From: Acidithiobacillus marinus
GTDB taxonomy: Bacteria > Pseudomonadota > Gammaproteobacteria > Acidithiobacillales > Acidithiobacillaceae
DNA: 64,000 nt
NCBI RefSeq assembly: GCF_002847505.1
Contig: NZ_MXAV01000007.1
Location: 1 to 64,000 of the forward strand
Reading direction: 5' to 3'
In this document: piece by piece, positions 17,101-53,846 of the stretch
Layout: every line of letters begins with the position of its first letter
How positions within the stretch are numbered: position 1 is the stretch's first letter
The notes under the pieces: model-generated
Databases searched by the model: none
The model's input: the letters and a program-made list of their open reading frames with translations, nothing else
What the model was told of the DNA's origin: nothing
Program-made: the position numbers and the translations under genes

Positions 17101-17433
17101 TACCGCAATCCCGATTGGAATACCACTGACGATTTGCGATTGCCCGTTATAAATGTTCTGGATGTTGACAGTTGTTGTTACCCCAAACAAAGCGGCATAG
17201 GCAATGGCCATGATCATGATGTGATGAATCAAGAACCGGCTCTGCATCAAGGACATGATCACCAGAATAAAGAGGCTGACAATCAGCATCAATCCGATTA
17301 AAGGACCGCCCCAGGCACTCGAACTGCTTGCCCATGCGGTATTATTCGCCGGGTTGAACAGCATCTGGAGCATGGTGAAAACGGAAAAAAACGGCTTAAT
17401 GTTGCCGATGACGTAGATGTTCCAAGTCATCAA
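14107..17433 (-). CDS. traG: Conjugal transfer protein TraG (F-type T4SS)
   Basis: 1108 residues. The N-terminal 480 residues carry several membrane segments (around 12-30, 45-75 and the 365-460 region with MIPMMAILQFLFFAGFPIIIVVALAMGP), as in TraG-N. The long C-terminal part is soluble, Ala/Ser/Asn-rich and probably periplasmic, with repeated small-residue helices. In F-type systems TraG helps pilus assembly and mating-pair stabilisation and contributes to entry exclusion. The ATG overlaps the end of traH by 4 bp. It is the last core tra gene of the leftward operon. Confidence 0.82.
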   Translation of the reverse strand: MMTWNIYVIGNIKPFFSVFTMLQMLFNPANNTAWASSSSAWGGPLIGLMLIVSLFILVIMSLMQSRFLIHHIMIMAIAYAALFGVTTTVNIQNIYNGQSQIVSGIPIGIAVPASIFSDAFWSMTKEVGTADDLVTTDNTNMFSGPTSSNQVYGFDGPLSLMYRLRGLYASFSMTDPALSRSIANYVDFCISSDTPVLDSMGKQKDLSAALFQTTPPYPNATDTLYVNSSGDALTTPQATTCSNAEATLNSAWKDFETGSMPSGSKNLDQLLGTHLDTGSVASVSASQANTLLDDVFLNSGNAGYDFMNNMILNCAVEAGANENYDWDSNTPGMMSSYCATKATAFGRSVTVNAANASMFDMNMIPMMAILQFLFFAGFPIIIVVALAMGPNGFGKIGAFMAFGATTLAWMPISAIISNYAQSHMHEIMRHFVANLNNGPATAAINIPNLLEHAMRTQAMADKMLALTPVVTMVLLGLGGAYAATRLAQDQSEENSASKAIGETTPMPGTDTLSQGASGVQVNSTGNSYVGGGSGPEMMGTSPAFAAASFSMGSSMSAGISAAQQQEASYTQSAAASAADAWKQGYKIMNSRSSGVESYLQNNTQAGHELKNMRAQAAEINHSLGLTHDQGVSFAGALKAEVGSDFNKLGSGFWNSAKGEKAISNAFSAVNAGASINASEMDTIKNGLSNATTQKNMDSVTSASSASLLHTIASGSKDTDAEKASEDMSKDASRSGQDSRNATAARKRANSLSHLASASNSMNGGEAVNMAAMSSMMAEFDSKNPHGPDATLTAQAYADHNGLGKTWDHYHSAAMKSGMQSNAAAAWASIMTANAAVNQGRYAAAGNFWNDTLNKFGSFGTPGNGNVGSTVAGRMAKGAAMPAGGAGLTSQVDNAVPPPNASGNAAQAAAIRGATIARRDSINAMGEDQPGVVNQAYADWKAAEAGLPQKEIAKFNAAIAKAKGGWDGSDAMKVVQWMAKDPALAAAIGVSGTAALGAGVGMGGAHLANKWAKKAKAANDDQKTQPDDPSDSAHNQPAPKTSSDSDGDLGKTIQNDENLIKDVADGNWKGAERALKTNLEGDERQMSEPLKNPEKFGEDPGATPPVVDE

Positions 17434-19082
17434 ATTCCCCCGTGCGTCGCGTCCTGCATGGTCTGGTGATATTCCTTGACGAGCTTGATCGCCTTGAGTA
17501 CCCGTGTGCTATCGGTGTTGACGTTCCGCATATAGACGTTTTCGCTTTGAGAAAGACGCATAATGGAATCTTTATAGAAAGTCGGGATGACGACGTGTGC
17601 GTTCCCGCTATACACGCTTTGTTCGGTCGCCATGAGTGACGCCCCCAGCTTTACGGCATAGTCGTTGACCGCAACCGGCTCCATCAACCCCAGCACCTCC
17701 ACTACCAGAGCCGGAGATCCCTGCGATTCACGCAACATGGTATCGAGATCACCCGGCATGGTTTGCAAAAACTGTTGCTGCGCGGCGCTTAGGGGGGTTC
17801 CGTCAATAATGTCGTCCTCCAGTCCTACATGATCACCGGGACCGCCCCCAAAGAGCATGTGTTTGATGTGTGCTTTGATGCCTTCATACCCCAACGCACC
17901 CAATGTGGTACCCCCCTGATCGACATATTCACAGCCCATGTGTGGCGAAAACGGGGAATATGTTTGCGTCGTGGATGACCATGGCTCGCAGGTCATGACG
18001 GTAGCAGATTTGGTGCCGTTGACGAGATCCTGCAAGGATAAAGTCGGCGGCGCGGTTTCCGTATCCTGAGCGTTGGCTGCGTTAGGTGTGGCTTGTGTCG
18101 AATTTTCCTGTTCAGCCTCTTGATCGCTGTTCGCCGTTGAGCTGGCTCCTGGACGCAGGACTTCCGTGCCCACCAGAGACATCAGGATTTCCTTGGTGCA
18201 GGCATGGTCATGATTTTTGCAGGGGGCGCTGACATTGCTGACACTGTTATCAATGCCGGTCAGCATCTGGAAAGCCTCACTGTTGTTGATGGCCTTCCAG
18301 AACATATTGCCTTCGGGAATCAGATCGGACGCCGAAACATTTTCCGTTTTGGTTTGTGTCGTGGTTGATCCGCTGGATGTAAGGGTATCCCACGACTTCG
18401 TGATATTCGTTTTGAATGTGTCGAGGACGTTTTGTAGGACGCCTTCATGGTTGGCGGAGTTGTAAGCAGAGGACACGTCCGTGGACGCGCCCGATCCGAA
18501 CCCGAAAACCTTTTCAGCATTCTTCCCGACTGCTTTGAAGTCACCCATCACATCGCTGGCGTTGAATATGCCGTGCGCCAGTTGGCAGGTGTTGTGCAGA
18601 GCGTTATTCATGTTCTGAATGGTTTTTTCTATGGAGGCTAGCAAGGCACCGCACTGATGGCACATGGCGTCGATAGCCAACTGAAAAGCATAGCCCAGAG
18701 CTTCCTGACCAATCGTGCGGAGTAGCGCCAGAAACTCCTGTCCATTGATAAAGTGAAACGACCCCATATACAGGTTGATGCCACCGCATCCGGCGCTGAT
18801 GTCTGGCGGGCTGAAGCTGATGATATTGGCCCCCGAAAGCGGGGTCCGGACTTCGGCGTATCCACCGGAAAGGGTGACACCATTACCCATGCTCGCGGCC
18901 TGCGGCACTGAGGTGGCCGCGAACATCCCGCTGAGAAATCCCTGCATCCCGGCATAGGCATGTTCGGACTGCAACACACTGGTTGTGACCAGCGAGGCAG
19001 TAACGGCCAGTAACACCCCGGTCGAGAATTGCTTCTTGAGCGGTTTTTTAAGTTTTTTTAGCGGTTGCGATTTGTTTTGCAT
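17430..19082 (-). CDS. traH: Conjugal transfer protein TraH (F-type T4SS)
   Basis: The start is ATG 19082: it opens a typical signal peptide (MQNKSQPLKKLKK..., hydrophobic core TGVLLAVTASLVTT, then HAYAG). The upstream-extended frame (to 19313) merely runs antiparallel through iscB coding sequence in another frame. About 550 residues; TraH features include GNGVTLSGGYAEVRTP, SFSPPDISAGCGGINLYMGSF, paired cysteines (CHQCGALL) and coiled-coil regions. TraH is a periplasmic/outer-membrane pilus assembly factor. The ATG overlaps the iscB stop (TGATG). Confidence 0.88.
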   Translation of the reverse strand: MQNKSQPLKKLKKPLKKQFSTGVLLAVTASLVTTSVLQSEHAYAGMQGFLSGMFAATSVPQAASMGNGVTLSGGYAEVRTPLSGANIISFSPPDISAGCGGINLYMGSFHFINGQEFLALLRTIGQEALGYAFQLAIDAMCHQCGALLASIEKTIQNMNNALHNTCQLAHGIFNASDVMGDFKAVGKNAEKVFGFGSGASTDVSSAYNSANHEGVLQNVLDTFKTNITKSWDTLTSSGSTTTQTKTENVSASDLIPEGNMFWKAINNSEAFQMLTGIDNSVSNVSAPCKNHDHACTKEILMSLVGTEVLRPGASSTANSDQEAEQENSTQATPNAANAQDTETAPPTLSLQDLVNGTKSATVMTCEPWSSTTQTYSPFSPHMGCEYVDQGGTTLGALGYEGIKAHIKHMLFGGGPGDHVGLEDDIIDGTPLSAAQQQFLQTMPGDLDTMLRESQGSPALVVEVLGLMEPVAVNDYAVKLGASLMATEQSVYSGNAHVVIPTFYKDSIMRLSQSENVYMRNVNTDSTRVLKAIKLVKEYHQTMQDATHGGI

Positions 19083-20497
19083 CAACCCGTTGCGCGAGAG
19101 TCCCCGGCATTCATGCCGGGGAGGGATAGCACGGCGGCGCAAGCCGCCCCTGTTCCCGCATCTCCTTTGTCTGATGCTATCTTGGTCCACGCATACCCAT
19201 ATCCATCTGCCCGCTGGATCAGCGTGCAGAAACGGTGATGGATGCCTTGTACTGCTTCTTTTCCTGCCCCGACATTGAAACTGCCGCTGGTACGAATGAC
19301 GATGCGACCCCAATAGGTGCCGACTTTCTTGCCCTTGGTGACGACGGCCTTGACCATATCCCCGGTCTGAAAGCCGAACGCGCTCTTGCTCCGGGTCAGG
19401 TAGCTACGCGGAAAGCCATATTTCGTGAGATGCGTGCGCTGGTACCTGCCCCGCCCTGTCGCCTTGATGGTCAACACGGGCTGCTGCCAGTGCTGCACGG
19501 CATCCACCCGGCCCGTGCAGGCAGCATCCAGACAATGCGCCTTGGGGATACCAAGACGCTTGCGGTTCCACTTCGTCCGGCCACCGGTGCCGACTTCCAC
19601 ATCCAGCCCGGTTTCTTTCAGCCGTTCCCAGAGCGCCCAGCGGGTGCTGTTCACGGCGGCGGCATCCCGAAGCGGTGCCTTGCGTACCGCCTCGATGCGG
19701 GCCAGACGCTTCGGGTCTTTCACCAGAAAGTCCTGCACGTCCTGATTATTCTTGCGCTGATTGCAAGGGAAGCAGGCCAGGGTTAGGTTCGATACCCGGT
19801 CACTGCCGCCTTTGCTTTTGGGGTGAATATGGTCGATGGTGAGGGCCGTATGCTCCGCGTCGCAGTAGGCGCATTTCCGGCCCCACTTCTCCAGCAGATA
19901 CTCCCGGACCTCATAGCCCAGGAGTTCACCCTGCTGGTACTCCGCGCCACTGATCTCCGGCTTCTGCAATGCTTGCGTATCGAAGCGGTGCAGCATCGTC
20001 GAGAGGCTGGCAATCGGTGCCCAGCGTTGGAGCCGTGTCACCCATGCCATCGTTGTATCCACCCGATGTTGCAGGCTTGGTGCCAGCCATCCTTGCGGCT
20101 TGGTGCGGTTCAGGAATCGCGGAGCCCGGTAGCGGAGCTGATTGCGCCGACGACGGCGAAAAGCCCGGCGACTGGTCAGCTTGTCCCGAATAGCATGACC
20201 CCGGTGCTGCAATTCCAGCAGCATCAGGACCACGCGGGCTTTAATCACTTCGCCCGTACTTTGGTCCACGATTTCCTTCTCCCGCACCAAAGCTAATCCA
20301 GAAGTCTTACTGCCCGGCGTGATGGATAAGCGCAGATCTTGCAGGACGGAATCTTTCTGCAAGCGGTCCACCAGGCGGATGGTAAAAGGCACCATGCGAT
20401 GCACTCTTGCCCGCCCGCGCTCCAGCAGGATGCGTGCCCGTTTCTCCGAGCACGGCATCAGCGGTTTGTGGCGTTTGTCCAAAACAAATACAGCCAT
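19082..20497 (-). CDS. iscB: IscB RNA-guided nuclease, RuvC-I aspartate missing
   Basis: 471 residues with full IscB order: PLMP domain (KPLMPCSEKRARILLERGRARV, 11-32), RuvC-I (SITPGSKTSGLAL, 58-70), arginine-rich bridge helix (ELQHRG then RRAFRRRRRNQ, 95-120), RuvC-II (SGAEYQQGELLGYEVREYLL, Glu186), HNH (CAYC...TIDHIHPKS...CFPCN, His223, zinc Cys209/212/242/245) and RuvC-III (HCLDAACTG, Asp324). IscB uses an omega-RNA to cut DNA and is the ancestor-like relative of Cas9. Residue 60, normally the RuvC-I catalytic Asp of DPGSK, is Thr (codon ACG at 20318-20320). The HNH site looks intact, so the protein may be a natural nickase or a binder. It is inserted between traF and traH. Confidence 0.93.
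   Translation of the reverse strand: MAVFVLDKRHKPLMPCSEKRARILLERGRARVHRMVPFTIRLVDRLQKDSVLQDLRLSITPGSKTSGLALVREKEIVDQSTGEVIKARVVLMLLELQHRGHAIRDKLTSRRAFRRRRRNQLRYRAPRFLNRTKPQGWLAPSLQHRVDTTMAWVTRLQRWAPIASLSTMLHRFDTQALQKPEISGAEYQQGELLGYEVREYLLEKWGRKCAYCDAEHTALTIDHIHPKSKGGSDRVSNLTLACFPCNQRKNNQDVQDFLVKDPKRLARIEAVRKAPLRDAAAVNSTRWALWERLKETGLDVEVGTGGRTKWNRKRLGIPKAHCLDAACTGRVDAVQHWQQPVLTIKATGRGRYQRTHLTKYGFPRSYLTRSKSAFGFQTGDMVKAVVTKGKKVGTYWGRIVIRTSGSFNVGAGKEAVQGIHHRFCTLIQRADGYGYAWTKIASDKGDAGTGAACAAVLSLPGMNAGDSRATG
19102..19121 (-). repeat. Right-end palindrome of IscB element
   Basis: A perfect 9-bp palindrome (CCCCGGCAT / ATGCCGGGG, 2-nt loop) lies inside the last codons of iscB. Such hairpins mark the end of IS200/IS605-like elements and suggest the element border is within about 20 bp of the traH start. 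Confidence 0.65.
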
Positions 20498-20799
20498 TTG
20501 CTTCTCCTATGCCCTTACGGGCGACAAGTCCTTACGGACGCTTGTGACTCAGGCTTTCGCCTATATCCCCTCGGGGCTGTGTGATACCGGCTCCGTGCTG
20601 TTACACACGCGGCGGACACCTTCGGGCCTTTACCTTTGCCCAGCATGATGCCTGCCTTGCAGAGCCTGGAACTGAGGAAGCATTCCAGGGTGCGTCTTAC
20701 CGACCTGTATCCCACGTCTGCCGGATTACTCCGGCCCCCTGGTCAACCCAGCCTGCGTACCGCCTTGCAAGCTCCGCCCTTCAGGGCGGGGTAGTTGAC
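20498..20799 (-). ncRNA. Putative omega-RNA of IscB
   Basis: A 302-bp stretch between the traF stop and iscB start contains no gene but at least six hairpins, read on the minus strand: 20772-20789 (GCCCTGAAGGGC type, the classic left-end palindrome), 20720-20735, 20666-20688, 20553-20564, 20525-20546 and 20512-20523. Omega-RNAs are encoded directly upstream of iscB and are about 200-300 nt, with a guide at the 5' end taken from flanking DNA. Here the guide would be read from the last codons of traF. AGGAG for iscB lies at the 3' end of this segment. Confidence 0.75.
20772..20789 (-). repeat. Left-end palindrome of IscB element
   Basis: The minus strand reads CCCGCCCTGAAGGGCGG, the stem-loop commonly found at the left end of IS605-like IscB/TnpB elements. 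It starts about 10 bp after the traF stop codon. Confidence 0.65.
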
Positions 20800-21744
20800 T
20801 TACCAGTTTTTAGCCCGCGCTGCGGTCTGTATCTCAATATAACGACTAATCGCCTGGGGTGATGTGATACCAGCCTTTGACGCTGCATGGATCTCATGAG
20901 TGGTCAGTACGCCGCGCTCATAGGCGTTTTCTGACCACTCCGACATTTTCTTCGGCAGCAGGTGGAGATAGCTGGCATCGGCCAGCAGGTTCTGCTCCAG
21001 GCTGGCCATCACCTGATACCCCTGGGAAATGATGGCGAAATTATCCGGAGGATAGACCATCACGATGGATGGGGTTTCCACCAGATGCAAGAGCTTGGCT
21101 TGTCCGTGATCTTTCACAAAAACCGCATTTTTAGGAACGCCAGAAACAGATCCGCCATTCACATCAATATAAATCGTCTTGAAATGCGCCTGCTGCAGCA
21201 GGTGCCGGTACTGGCGGAGCTGCAGGTTACAAAAGGGACAGTCGTGCTTGACGAACACCCACATCCCCACATGATGCGTGAGATATTGCAGGGCGTGCTG
21301 CTTGTTCCAGGCGATATAGGTGTTGAACTCGCTGTTGGCATCGTTTGAGCGTGGTACGAAGTTGGAATAATTCAATACCGGATTGGTATTGGCCACCTGA
21401 ACGAATTTCTCGGCGAAGTTTTGTGCTTTGTCGAACATCACCTTTTGGACAGAGAGGTACTGGGTGACGTTTTTCGTGCTGGGATTATTGATGGCCGCAT
21501 CCCGGAGTTTGGGCAACTCGACACGAATCCACTGCACGGACAATGGCGGCGGGGATTTCTTTCGTGGCACGGGCGGCTTGGGTTTTGCGACAACCGGCTT
21601 GGGTACCGGCTTCGGCAGAATTCTTGGCTTCGGCGGTGGAGGAGGGGGGATCTGATACCAGAACCATCCTGGTTCAGCCGCAGCTTGGCTGGCCCACAGT
21701 AAGCAAGCCAGAGTTGCGATTCCCTGTAAGAAACGGGCTTTAAT
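20800..21744 (-). CDS. traF: TraF-like thioredoxin-fold T4SS protein, non-standard start
   Basis: The C-terminal domain has a thioredoxin fold with a CPFC redox motif (WVFVKHDCPFCNLQLRQY) and the cis-Pro segment VETPSIVMVYP, as in F-type TraF. The first usual start codon (GTG 21570) would skip an obvious export signal encoded upstream in the same frame: KARFLQGIATLACLLWASQAAA, then EPGWFWYQIPPPPP and a Pro/Lys-rich linker. The only candidate that includes it is ATT at 21744, which overlaps the upstream TAA. TraF is periplasmic and assists pilus assembly and disulfide chemistry. The coordinates given assume the ATT start; the stop at 20800 is certain. Confidence 0.78.
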   Translation of the reverse strand: MKARFLQGIATLACLLWASQAAAEPGWFWYQIPPPPPPKPRILPKPVPKPVVAKPKPPVPRKKSPPPLSVQWIRVELPKLRDAAINNPSTKNVTQYLSVQKVMFDKAQNFAEKFVQVANTNPVLNYSNFVPRSNDANSEFNTYIAWNKQHALQYLTHHVGMWVFVKHDCPFCNLQLRQYRHLLQQAHFKTIYIDVNGGSVSGVPKNAVFVKDHGQAKLLHLVETPSIVMVYPPDNFAIISQGYQVMASLEQNLLADASYLHLLPKKMSEWSENAYERGVLTTHEIHAASKAGITSPQAISRYIEIQTAARAKNW

Positions 21745-23180: not shown

Positions 23181-23210
23181 CCTCACGCTTCGGCTTGAGG
23201 GTTTTTCTTC
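23181..23210 (+). terminator. Cassette terminator
   Basis: CCCTCACGCTTCGGC-type stem with GCTTCGGC loop and TTTTTCTT tail; one of 15 near-identical copies. Confidence 0.88.
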
Positions 23211-23220
23211 GGGTGCCATT

Positions 23221-23278
23221 CCATACTTTCTGTCACCCCGCTCCCTTGCGGTATTCATACAAACACAAGGGAGCGAAT
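23221..23278 (+). promoter_or_regulatory. Cassette leader B: core plus RBS hairpin
   Basis: Core CCATACTTTCTGTC (23221-23234). A perfect 10-bp stem CGCTCCCTTG / CAAGGGAGCG encloses the loop beginning CGGTATTCATAC; the Shine-Dalgarno AAGGGAG is wholly inside the stem. The ATG follows 4 nt after it. Confidence 0.85.
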
Positions 23279-23485
23279 ATGAACTTTACTTTTAATCACC
23301 GTCTTCGTAACGACATCATCCGCACATTCAACGTACTGGCTTATGCCGGCGGTACCACCCAGCTCGGTGCAGTGGCCTATAACCTTTGGGTCCATGACAA
23401 GGGCATGGCTGGATTTTTGGCTGCCATTGGCTATATTCTTGTATGTAAGAGCGTTGTATGGCTCATCATGGCCTGCGAAGACTAA
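23279..23485 (+). CDS. Small membrane protein (68 aa)
   Basis: The ATG directly follows leader B. A basic N-terminus (MNFTFNHRLRNDIIRTF) is followed by two hydrophobic helices (LAYAGGTTQLGAVAYNLW and GFLAAIGYILVCKSVVWLIMA). No family recognised. Together with the next 42-residue gene it forms one cassette closed by the terminator at 23648. Confidence 0.6.
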   Translation: MNFTFNHRLRNDIIRTFNVLAYAGGTTQLGAVAYNLWVHDKGMAGFLAAIGYILVCKSVVWLIMACED

Positions 23486-36229: not shown

Positions 36230-36260
36230 CCCTCACGCTTCGGCTTGAGGGTTTTTCTTT
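36230..36260 (+). terminator. Cassette terminator
   Basis: CCCTCACG..GCTTGAGGG hairpin and TTTTTCTTT tail. Confidence 0.88.
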
Positions 36261-36276
36261 GCCTGCTGTGCGCTTC

Positions 36277-36332
36277 CCATACTTTCTGTCACCGCTCTTT
36301 TTTTCGGTATTCATCCGAAAAGGAGCAGCCGT
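36277..36332 (+). promoter_or_regulatory. Cassette leader E: core plus RBS hairpin
   Basis: Core at 36277-36290. Stem GCTC..TTTTCGG / CCGAAAAGGAGC closes a TATTCAT loop; GGAG lies within the stem. Confidence 0.8.
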
Positions 36333-36422
36333 ATGGCTATCGTCGTGTGCGCGTGCGTGATCACGGGCTTCAGCATTTATGCTGGGGTTCGTGGCTCACT
36401 CATCCGCTCCGGTATCATCTGA
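36333..36422 (+). CDS. Tiny membrane peptide (29 aa)
   Basis: The ATG follows leader E directly. The peptide (MAIVVCACVITGFSIYAGV...) is a single hydrophobic helix with two cysteines. About 100 bp without a clear gene separate it from the cassette terminator at 36525. Its reality rests on the leader in front. Confidence 0.45.
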   Translation: MAIVVCACVITGFSIYAGVRGSLIRSGII

Positions 36423-36524
36423 TACTGGATCCTCTGCTTGCTTTTGCAAGCCGGGGAGCACGTCGCCCCTGGGAACAGAAGGTAGTCAGATGGAACTCAT
36501 CTCGCTATCACGACGCATCTCCCA

Positions 36525-36555
36525 CCCCACAGCTTCGGCTTTGGGGTTTTTCTTT
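36525..36555 (+). terminator. Cassette terminator
   Basis: CCCCACAGCTTCGGCTTTGGGG type hairpin plus TTTTTCTTTG. Confidence 0.88.
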
Positions 36556-36565
36556 GTGTGCTAGT

Positions 36566-36622
36566 CCATAGTTCCTGTCCGGCCTCTCCTTTCCGGTATT
36601 CAATCATCGTAAGGAGAGTGTC
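36566..36622 (+). promoter_or_regulatory. Cassette leader F (variant core)
   Basis: The core reads CCATAGTTCCTGTC (two changes). Stem CTCTCCTT / AAGGAGAG, loop with CGGTATTCAATC; the Shine-Dalgarno is in the stem. Confidence 0.75.
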
Positions 36623-42499: not shown

Positions 42500-42742
42500 T
42501 TAAACTTCGCTCGGTTTCTTGGGATTTTCCGCAGATCTTATGCCATCCAAGGCGGCGATAATATCGTCGGTGTATCCGATAATTCCTTGCCATGACAAAT
42601 ACTTATTGAATGCTGTACGGACATCCATCTTACCTATTTCATCCAGATAGGCTTGAATATCGCTTTCCCCATCCGGCTCATAACCCATGTTCCGCATAAT
42701 GTCAGTCAACACTTCGTCAGGTATTTCATTTACATCCATCAT
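42500..42742 (-). CDS. Small acidic protein (80 aa)
   Basis: GAGGAGG before the ATG, which overlaps the upstream stop (ATGATG). Acidic and helical (MMDVNEIPDEVLTDIMRNMGY...). Second gene of cassette J. Unknown function. Confidence 0.5.
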   Translation of the reverse strand: MMDVNEIPDEVLTDIMRNMGYEPDGESDIQAYLDEIGKMDVRTAFNKYLSWQGIIGYTDDIIAALDGIRSAENPKKPSEV

Positions 42743-42969
42743 CGTAACACCTCCTCGATCTGGAACATCTGTTGGGCAAACGAAGATTCTACAATGGGCG
42801 TTTCTCGCCACAGCAACACATCATCCCCATCGGGATCCTGAACGGGTATGACATCCGAACCTTCACAGTCGTAATCAGCGATGACTGCCTGTAGCCCCGC
42901 TTTCTGGGCCTCATCATCGAGATAGACCGCGTTGACCAAACCGCCGGAAAGGCTAACCAATACTTTCAT
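42739..42969 (-). CDS. Small hypothetical protein (76 aa)
   Basis: ATG 42969 lies behind leader J. MKVLVSLSGGLVNAVYLDDEAQKAGLQAVIADYDCEGSD is a small alpha/beta protein; acidic C-terminus. No family recognised; coupled to the following acidic protein. Confidence 0.52.
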   Translation of the reverse strand: MKVLVSLSGGLVNAVYLDDEAQKAGLQAVIADYDCEGSDVIPVQDPDGDDVLLWRETPIVESSFAQQMFQIEEVLR

Positions 42970-43024
42970 AAGAACCTCCATTTTGAGTGAATACCAAACC
43001 TCAAAGGCCAGACAGAAAGTATGG
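42970..43024 (-). promoter_or_regulatory. Cassette leader J: core plus hairpin
   Basis: Core CCATACTTTCTGTC (43011-43024). Stem TTTGAG / CTCAAA with loop GTTTGGTATTCA; GGAGG follows just after the stem. Confidence 0.72.
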
Positions 43025-43045
43025 GAAGCACGCGGCAGGCAAGGG

Positions 43046-43072
43046 AAAACCCTCAAGCCGAAGCGTGAGGGT
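43046..43072 (-). terminator. Cassette terminator
   Basis: CCCTCACGCTTCGGCTTGAGGG type hairpin on the minus strand. Confidence 0.86.
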
Positions 43073-43086
43073 GGGGGCGGATAGAT

Positions 43087-43884
43087 CTATGCCGCAATGG
43101 AGCAGCGATTTTGAATGGCCTCGGTTAAGAGGACCAACTCTTCCCCAAAAAAGTGGGCCGATACCCATTCTTGAGCGGCATCCAATCTGGAAATGTCCGC
43201 CTTTTGTATCCGATCCAGCGCCTTGATGAACAAAGGGCTTGGTTCTGGATCATGCTGGTCAGCGCAAATCCTGCCGAGCTTCTCCGCCAATTCCCAGAAA
43301 TACTGGTTCTTCGCGGATTGCCGGGCAGCCTTGAGTGCCTTGGCATCCTTGATACCGGCAGACTTCATGGCTTCGCCGGCAGCTTTGGCTGCTTCCTGGG
43401 CCTTTTTGAAGTGGGAAGCGCCTTTCACCTCCGTGCCCTGGACCTTCACAGAGGCCGTGTGGTTTATAAACTTCCGACCATTCCGTTCTTCTTCAGTGGG
43501 GAAAGCGGAGATGACGATCTCGGTACCTAATCCCATATCAGCAATAACGGTTTCCAGCTTGGGCAAGAGCCTTTGGCAAAACTCCGTATCCACTTCCAGG
43601 GAAATAATATCTTTCCCCAGAACGATGCGTGCTTTCTGGTAGGTATTACCAGAGCCGTCCACATTTTCCTTTGTGGAAAATCCCATCAGAGGGCCGGACA
43701 GCTTTGTTACGAAACCAGCCCCGTGCTTTTTGAAGATGGCACGGGTGGCCTTGCACTTTTCTTCGGAATACCCCTGTTTCCAGGCGGACTCTCCGATCTC
43801 ATGGCGAGCCTCGAATAGCGCCGCCTCGACGTTGGCGTCTTTGAGGGTGATAAAACCACTAACAACAGTATTGTGCGTTTTCAT
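43087..43884 (-). CDS. Hypothetical protein (265 aa)
   Basis: ATG 43884 behind leader K. MKTHNTVVSGFITLKDANVEAALFEARHEIGESAWKQGYSEEKCKATRAIF, then a beta-rich middle and a lysine/alanine-rich helix (FKKAQEAAKAAGEAMKSAGIKDAKALKAARQSAKN). Its C-terminal segment (AAQEWVSAHFFGEELVLLTEAIQ) resembles the end of the Erf protein of the same element (FAEQWCRINFAGDDLKALEKAI), hinting at a shared C-terminal domain. Possible nucleic-acid binding partner; unproven. Confidence 0.5.
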   Translation of the reverse strand: MKTHNTVVSGFITLKDANVEAALFEARHEIGESAWKQGYSEEKCKATRAIFKKHGAGFVTKLSGPLMGFSTKENVDGSGNTYQKARIVLGKDIISLEVDTEFCQRLLPKLETVIADMGLGTEIVISAFPTEEERNGRKFINHTASVKVQGTEVKGASHFKKAQEAAKAAGEAMKSAGIKDAKALKAARQSAKNQYFWELAEKLGRICADQHDPEPSPLFIKALDRIQKADISRLDAAQEWVSAHFFGEELVLLTEAIQNRCSIAA

Positions 43885-43945
43885 AAATAAATCTCCTTGT
43901 GTTGGGATGAAATTCCAAACACAAGGGGGGTGACAGAAAGTATGG
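43885..43945 (-). promoter_or_regulatory. Cassette leader K: core plus RBS hairpin
   Basis: Core at 43932-43945. The 12-nt arms CCTTGTGTTTGG / CCCAACACAAGG enclose a GGAATTTCAT-type loop; nearly identical to leader A although the genes are unrelated. Confidence 0.82.
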
Positions 43946-44197
43946 GAGCTCATTATCCACTTGCATTCTATCGCTGCATTGCGTACTTTGAAACGGAGAC
44001 CAAAGGGCATCCCCACACGAGGATGTGATCTCCTTCCCTGCCTTGGGGTTTTTTCTCAAATCTTTGGTCGGTGCAAGGCCGGCAATGTTCCGGGTTCTGT
44101 TGCAAGGAAGTTGCTGTAATTGAATACCCCTTACTGTTTGAGGGCAGCAGACGCCAGCCCAGGTGTGAACAGAGGGCATTTTCTTTGTCTGCAGGGC
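43946..44197. other. Gene-poor stretch with decayed leader
   Basis: About 250 bp without a credible gene. On the minus strand, 44103-44142 reads GGGGTATTCAATTACAGC...CCTTGC, resembling the hairpin of leader N without its core. This suggests a cassette that has been lost or has decayed. Confidence 0.35.
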
Positions 44198-53770: not shown

Positions 53771-53846
53771 TGGTGCCCCGAGCGCGAATCGAACGCGCGA
53801 CCTACCGCTTAGGAGGCGGTTGCTCTATCCACTGAGCTACCGAGGC
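53771..53846 (-). tRNA. tRNA-Arg (anticodon CCU)
   Basis: A 76-nt cloverleaf on the minus strand: acceptor GCCTCGG / TCGGGGC, D-arm with AGCTCAGTGGATAGAGC, anticodon stem-loop ACCGC CTCCTAA GCGGT (anticodon CCT), T-arm CGCGCGTTCGATTCGCGC and encoded CCA. It reads AGG codons. Confidence 0.96.

What the first reader, a model, noticed from the sequence alone, without database searches (positions are those of the whole stretch)
20318..20320. IscB with the RuvC-I catalytic aspartate replaced by threonine
The motif that is normally DPGSK reads TPGSK (Thr60, codon ACG), while Glu186 (RuvC-II), His223 (HNH) and Asp324 (RuvC-III) are kept. In IscB studied so far, loss of this Asp abolishes RuvC cutting but leaves HNH nicking. 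This would be a natural IscB nickase or DNA-binding regulator, kept in an otherwise intact reading frame inside a transfer operon.
Basis: partly seen in the sequence, partly recalled or inferred. Interest (0 to 1): 0.85.

Follow-up and report, generated by a model that had tools for sequence, protein, structure and literature searches.

The report
IscB that lost one cutting half
A small RNA-guided DNA cutter, a cousin of Cas9's ancestor, belongs to a bacterial lineage in which one of its two cutting sites has decayed step by step while the other is kept, so it probably nicks DNA instead of breaking both strands.

Summary
Thr60 is real (codon ACG, 20318-20320) in an intact 471-aa IscB directly behind a HEARO/omegaRNA. 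The window protein thus lacks two of four RuvC residues but keeps H321, D324 and the HNH triad. This is clade-wide: 7 of 7 full-length members of a supported Acidithiobacillus clade have Met/Leu168, and 5 of 7 have also lost Asp60. Inferred order: RuvC-II first. All 21 pairs in the clade show dN/dS 0.10-0.19; HNH and zinc residues are unchanged in 7 of 7; all 7 loci have an omegaRNA, one just under the Rfam cut-off. The window copy is an insertion between traF and traH; four relatives have the junction without it. Over 151 distinct IscBs, 13 lack a RuvC residue and 2 an HNH one. Best reading: a natural RNA-guided target-strand nickase, the mirror of IsrB, probably serving nick-driven retention or homing. 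Nicking is inferred, not assayed. Ten literature searches listed no such lineage; key papers were not held.

The parts
19082..20497 (-). iscB, 471 aa plus stop; RuvC residues T60, M168, H321, D324; HNH triad H223, N237, N246
   Evidence: ORF; NF040563 guided_IscB 441 bits; residues
20318..20320 (-). codon 60, ACG Thr, in place of the RuvC-I Asp
19994..19996 (-). codon 168, ATG Met, in place of the RuvC-II Glu (OgeuIscB E193)
19829..19831 (-). HNH His223 (OgeuIscB H247), kept
19787..19789 (-). HNH Asn237, kept
19760..19762 (-). HNH Asn246, kept
19535..19537 (-). RuvC-III His321 (OgeuIscB H340), kept
19526..19528 (-). RuvC-III Asp324 (OgeuIscB D343), kept
20559..20799 (-). HEARO / omegaRNA (RF02033), full-length match; its first bases are the left end of the element
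   Evidence: 95.2 bits, gathering 83; left-end comparison
20800..20816 (-). presumed guide: the flank just outside the left end, here the last codons of traF with its stop (inferred from IscB biology)
19102..19121 (-). right-end G+C-rich hairpin of the element; element runs about 19083-20799
17430..19082 (-). traH (550 aa); its ATG overlaps the iscB stop (TGATG)
   Evidence: PF06122
20800..21570 (-). traF
   Evidence: PF13728

Best explanation
The window holds a mobile IscB element whose protein has an intact HNH site and a RuvC site missing two of its four catalytic residues. It should bind its omegaRNA, recognise target plus TAM, and let HNH nick the target strand while the non-target strand stays whole. 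Shown here by sequence: the residue losses, their clade-wide pattern, purifying selection after the loss, retention of HNH, zinc-site cysteines and omegaRNA, and an insertion that left traF and traH whole. Inferred: the order of loss (168 first, then 60). Inferred from known IscB/Cas9 biochemistry: nickase activity. Inferred and less certain: the nick serves retention or homing. The guide is the traF end, so the target is the traF-traH junction without the element; a nick there, turned into a break by replication, would be repaired from a copy that has the element.
For: T60 and M168 against D61 and E193 of OgeuIscB (catalytic roles PMC9640706 passages). Predicted RuvC-II strand 162-168 ends at residue 168. 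Clade of 7 rows, 99/86 support with columns 164-171 left out: Met/Leu168 in 7 of 7, Asp60 lost in 5 of 7; D222, H223, N237, N246 and cysteines 209, 212, 242, 245 unchanged in 7 of 7. dN/dS 0.104-0.186 over all 21 pairs of the clade, dS 0.45-1.72; the 28 pairs of 8 intact relatives reach at most 0.187, with some saturated dS. omegaRNA at all 7 loci: 6 at or above Rfam gathering, L010 at 81.5 bits against 83. traF-traH junction without the element in the 4 relatives whose junction was read, out of 5 other traF places found; one lies on a syntenic element with traF 93% identical. Different sites: traF|traH, before SLT-traF (L026), near traL (L013/L037), before traG (fragment L078); left flanks differ. 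A separately RuvC-impaired element (D60H) is present as two identical copies of about 1,700 bp with different flanks in one genome.
Against: No biochemistry. H321 and D324 are kept in 7 of 7 clade members, so the RuvC pocket has not decayed freely; a residual role or recent loss is possible (a related fragment, L078, has Glu324). The window right flank is ATGC, whereas 43 of 48 right flanks found by script in the family are ATGA, so the TAM at its own target may be poor. The short spacer between the traF stop and the traH ATG seen in the four relatives is missing here, so the exact empty target is not seen in any relative. Over the whole set RuvC losses (13 of 151) exceed HNH losses (2 of 151), but as roughly 5 against 2 events, counted by eye, this is not a strong asymmetry. 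Homing itself is unshown.
Confidence: 0.7

Rival explanations
1. Decay: the element is moved or copied by something else, IscB is no longer needed, and RuvC was simply the first part to be lost.
For: A further fragment of this kind has Leu168, Glu324 and a stop in frame (L027/L034/L078); a short in-frame deletion derivative of the ORF sits elsewhere in the same genome (L005); 24 of the related loci had frames under 380 aa, broken or partial; no Y1 transposase match in the window's genome.
Against: dN/dS 0.104-0.186 in all 21 clade pairs at dS 0.45-1.72; intact frames and unchanged HNH residues and cysteines in 7 of 7; omegaRNA at all 7.
Confidence: 0.17
2. Nuclease-silent, RNA-guided DNA-binding regulator, like TldR from TnpB.
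For: RuvC residues are gone; the element lies inside an operon and could affect its expression.
Against: The HNH triad is intact; clade members have different flanks, hence different guides; the guide has no other place in its own held genome with under 2 mismatches, and the element interrupts its own target.
Confidence: 0.06
3. RuvC still cuts, with other side chains (Thr60, His170, His321, Asp324) holding metal.
For: H321 and D324 are unchanged in the 7 clade members; His170 is new in this clade (7 of 7 against 1 of 144 other rows).
Against: Both the RuvC-I Asp and the RuvC-II Glu are gone; engineered D61A is described as RuvC-inactivated in OrufIscB (PMC13180657 passages) and E193A is used in the cleavage-silent OgeuIscB (PMC9640706 passages).
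Confidence: 0.07

Closest known systems
IscB (OMEGA RNA-guided endonuclease; OgeuIscB 7xht/8csz, OrufIscB 9nvu)
   Same: HEARO omegaRNA upstream, RRXRR and HNH domains, HNH triad; NCBIfam guided_IscB 441 bits; best fold match 8csz
   Different: RuvC-I Asp is Thr and RuvC-II Glu is Met; by inference single-strand nicking only
Engineered IscB nickase (RuvC-I D61A)
   Same: RuvC-I residue removed, HNH left; described as RuvC-inactivated in PMC13180657 (passages)
   Different: Natural, two RuvC residues lost, shared by a lineage under purifying selection
IsrB
   Same: Natural OMEGA nickase with an omegaRNA (PMC9581776 passages)
   Different: IsrB lacks HNH and keeps RuvC; here HNH is kept and RuvC residues are lost: the mirror image
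IshB (recalled, no call)
   Same: HNH kept without a working RuvC
   Different: IshB is recalled to lack the RuvC domain; here the RuvC segments are present and only catalytic residues are gone
TldR (recalled; PMC13418256 seen in a search listing only)
   Same: Mobile-element RNA-guided nuclease relative with natural RuvC loss
   Different: TnpB-derived with no HNH, so wholly silent; guides to host genes
HNH nicking homing endonucleases such as I-HmuI (recalled, no call)
   Same: HNH single-strand nick proposed to drive copying into an empty site
   Different: Protein-guided, not RNA-guided

Membership tests
IscB | Profile match to the family | tested here: met
   NF040563 441.1 bits, cut-off 175; RRXRR PF14239 and HNH PF01844
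IscB | HEARO/omegaRNA directly upstream, same strand | tested here: met
   RF02033 95.2 bits, gathering 83
IscB | Intact HNH triad | tested here: met
   H223, N237, N246
IscB | Intact RuvC tetrad (D, E, H, D) | tested here: not met
   T60, M168, H321, D324: a member by descent, not an intact dual nuclease
IscB | RNA-guided double-strand cutting | not testable with these tools
   No assay; predicted not met
IsrB | HNH absent, RuvC active | tested here: not met
   HNH present and its triad intact, RuvC residues lost
TldR-like silent regulator | No intact nuclease site; guide matching another genomic site | tested here: not met
   HNH intact; no other place with under 2 mismatches to the 17-nt flank in the held genome
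IS200/IS605-type mobile element | Defined subterminal hairpin ends and precise insertion | tested here: met
   Left and right ends shared by relatives, sharp flank change between identical copies, junction without the element in relatives
IS200/IS605-type mobile element | Own Y1 transposase | tested here: not met
   No match to PF01797 in the own genome

The most novel reading that the evidence does not exclude
A lineage of IscB elements has turned into RNA-guided nicking homing elements of conjugative DNA: the RuvC half was given up in two steps (RuvC-II Glu, then RuvC-I Asp) and target-strand nicking by HNH alone now keeps and spreads the element inside transfer operons, where a double-strand break in the carrier would be costly.
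Probability: 0.35. Interest if true: 0.8.

Novelty: new variant of a known kind. Interest (0 to 1): 0.62.

Why it matters
IsrB shows that OMEGA nickases with RuvC alone exist; a natural lineage with HNH alone would be the missing mirror and would show which cut the element needs. It makes the retention/homing model of IscB testable with natural enzymes: intact and impaired relatives 74-82% identical to the window protein exist in the same genus, an intact one in the same genome (L002). It also offers compact natural nickase candidates with omegaRNA and a likely ATGA TAM for editing work.

Tried and rejected
E186 as the RuvC-II residue. One search showed this to be wrong: the catalytic Glu is at 168. 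With D60, E168, H321 and D324 the counts are 11 of 83 and 13 of 151. The 19 of 151 proteins with a changed E186 all keep the RuvC tetrad, so the binomial test and an argument from the Pseudomonas plasmid copies L134 and L143 beside traU are withdrawn.

Sequencing error, rejected: see the observation check. A local pseudogene, rejected: open frame and dN/dS.

A single D60 loss shared by the window and the Ala60 rows is only weakly supported (80/12): Thr60 may have come through Ala or separately.

L051 (Leu168) as an independent loss, doubted: residues 321-437 resemble L135 (0.59-0.82 per block) and not this clade (0.29-0.42), while residues 1-120 are nearer to this clade (0.57-0.85) than to L135 (0.50-0.58); in between both are alike, so it looks mosaic but the break is not placed.

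Other genomic targets for the guide: none under 2 mismatches; with 2-3 mismatches there are 10 other matches, and the reversed-pattern control gave 15. More Met/Leu168 members in viral contigs: one DNA match, L251, in which tblastn with the window IscB found nothing. Class and phylum samples brought no further member of the 7-row clade: 9 of 369 and 2 of 398 genomes, the own genome included in each, had any match at 1e-60.

Literature: ten searches. No listed title or start of abstract mentions a natural RuvC-lost IscB lineage; the full texts of the listed papers were not read. I saw passages of PMC9755519, PMC13180657, PMC11870625, PMC9581776, PMC9640706, PMC12991159 and PMC11900391. The 2021 OMEGA paper and the 2022 Science IscB structure paper are not held.

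Biases: the second viral scan used the pattern PK[TA]H[AC]LDA, which favours intact RuvC-III; the genome-contig scan used patterns outside the four RuvC residues. 24 loci with frames under 380 aa were dropped before counting. The plasmid search found 82 records, of which I fetched 12. Trees still held column 168; one search left out 164-171 and was made for the 83 rows only. In one search the script takes the first ATG after the right end, which misplaces at least L009 and L025 by a few bases.

Full report
What is there. On the minus strand, 20497 to 19085 encodes a 471-aa IscB (guided_IscB 441 bits). A full-length HEARO/omegaRNA lies at 20799-20559 just upstream (95.2 bits). The unit sits between traF (20800-21570) and traH (17430-19082) of an F-type transfer cluster with traG, a transglycosylase (SLT) gene and a coupling-protein gene. 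The iscB stop overlaps the traH ATG as TGATG.

Residue 60. It is Thr (ACG, 20318-20320) and aligns with the catalytic Asp of solved IscBs.

Correction. The profile alignment to OgeuIscB places E193, catalytic by PMC9640706 (passages), on position 168; D61, H340, D343 and H247 fall on 60, 321, 324 and 223. In the AlphaFold2 model (mean pLDDT 74.9, pTM 0.66) a strand spans 162-168, as expected for RuvC-II, while 171-190 is poorly predicted; the best PDB match of the model is IscB 8csz (E 5.7e-23, TM-score only 0.50). Position 168 is Glu in 142 of 151 distinct IscBs and Met in the window. So two of four RuvC residues are gone. HNH H223, N237 and N246 are kept.

Clade. From genome, plasmid and viral collections I kept 83 distinct full-length sequences, the window included (24 loci with short, broken or partial frames dropped), and 68 more from a viral scan. 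In a tree of the 83 without columns 164-171 and the other catalytic columns, seven rows form a clade (99/86), all from the window's genus by the genome search: L001 (window), L014, L011, L009, L013, L010, L026. All seven have Met or Leu at 168; L011 and L009 keep Asp60; L013, L010, L026 and L014 have Ala60; the window has Thr60. The named records among them are Acidithiobacillus (L036 = L009, L037 = L013). The simplest order is loss of Glu168 first and Asp60 second. A contig-end fragment of the same kind has Leu168 and Glu324 (L078). The two other full IscBs of the own genome keep Asp60 and Glu168 (L002, L003).

Selection. Nei-Gojobori dN/dS is 0.104-0.186 over all 21 pairs of the clade (dS 0.45-1.72); the 28 pairs of eight intact relatives reach at most 0.187, the low end being spoiled by saturated dS. 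HNH residues and cysteines 209, 212, 242 and 245 are identical in 7 of 7. HEARO reaches gathering at 6 of the 7 loci, and L010 scores 81.5 against 83. The proteins are thus maintained after the RuvC loss.

Element and mobility. Relatives share a left end GTCAACTACCCC (start of HEARO) and a right end with a G+C-rich hairpin. A script found the right end in 48 of 84 rows; the next bases were ATGA in 43, and the ATG opened a frame of at least 50 aa in 38. The family therefore tends to insert in front of start codons, and ATGA is the likely TAM (an ATGA TAM for one characterised IscB is recalled, no call). The window's flank is ATGC. In the four relatives whose traF-traH junction I read there is no IscB in it; in one (L146/L170) traF is 93% identical and the cluster is syntenic. 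Members of the clade sit at other places of such clusters (L026 before SLT-traF, L013/L037 near traL, fragment L078 before traG). For L009, L010 and L014 the short contigs held (5.3-7.7 kb) show no homologue of the window's other proteins, so no tra neighbour can be claimed; L011 lies beside a homologue of an M50 gene of the window. In G017 a D60H element is present as two identical copies of about 1,700 bp with different flanks, so RuvC-impaired elements get copied. Neither that genome nor the window's has a Y1 transposase by PF01797; 6 of the 10 genomes searched do.

Wider frequency. With the correct tetrad, 13 of 151 distinct IscBs lack a RuvC residue: the seven above, L101 and L102 (D60H), L115 (E168K), L051 (E168L, probably mosaic), L231 (D60C with H321K) and L233 (D60A). 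Two of 151 lack an HNH residue: L038 (D222G) and L075 (N246T, a frame of 385 aa at a contig end). On the 83-row tree the RuvC-lost state needs at least 4 changes.

Mechanism. HNH cuts the target strand and RuvC the non-target strand (stated for Cas9 in PMC12991159, passages). With RuvC dead, the protein should be a target-strand nickase. Its presumed guide is the traF end, so it should nick the junction lacking the element. TnpB acts as a retention device and plasmid gene drive (PMC11870625, passages); by analogy a nick could do the same with less damage to a single-copy conjugative element. This last step is inference.

Novelty. No title or start of abstract in the listings of ten searches mentions a natural RuvC-lost IscB lineage, but the central IscB papers are not in the library, so this is not proof of absence. 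I rate it a new variant of a known kind.

Noticed in passing
L101 and L112 (G017:C1, about 13 kb apart), L102 (G025): A D60H IscB element, identical over about 1,700 bp at two sites with different flanks in one genome without a PF01797 match; a related copy at 89% DNA identity in another genus of the family.
   Followed up: partly
L005 (G000:C43:20896-21096): A short ORF of the same kind with an in-frame internal deletion (residues 1-23 joined to 427-471), with the left end and an ATGA right flank, like a non-autonomous derivative.
   Followed up: partly
Family-wide right ends, e.g. L002, L012, L043, L048, L053, L064: IscB elements of this family tend to sit directly before a start codon (ATGA), in part with the iscB stop overlapping it, so the downstream gene may be translationally coupled.
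   Followed up: partly
Position 186 of the family alignment: Glu186 (in EYQQG) is replaced by Q, A, G, K or M in 19 of 151 distinct proteins, all with the RuvC tetrad intact; its role is unknown.
   Followed up: no
L134 and L143 (Pseudomonas plasmids, after traU): Near-identical IscBs with 47 nonsynonymous against 9 synonymous differences (dN/dS 1.8), far above the other pairs: sequencing errors, release or positive selection.
   Followed up: no
L051: IscB that looks mosaic: its N-terminal part is nearer to the window's clade, residues 321-437 nearer to the A. caldus plasmid copy L135.
   Followed up: partly
window 23195-23485, 36245-36571, 42739-43056, 43087-44016: Several small frames share a run around 'HTFC' near their start, as if one leader sequence were repeated upstream of different genes.
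   Followed up: no
window 53774-53846: A tRNA gene, possibly the attachment site of the conjugative element; not tested.
   Followed up: no
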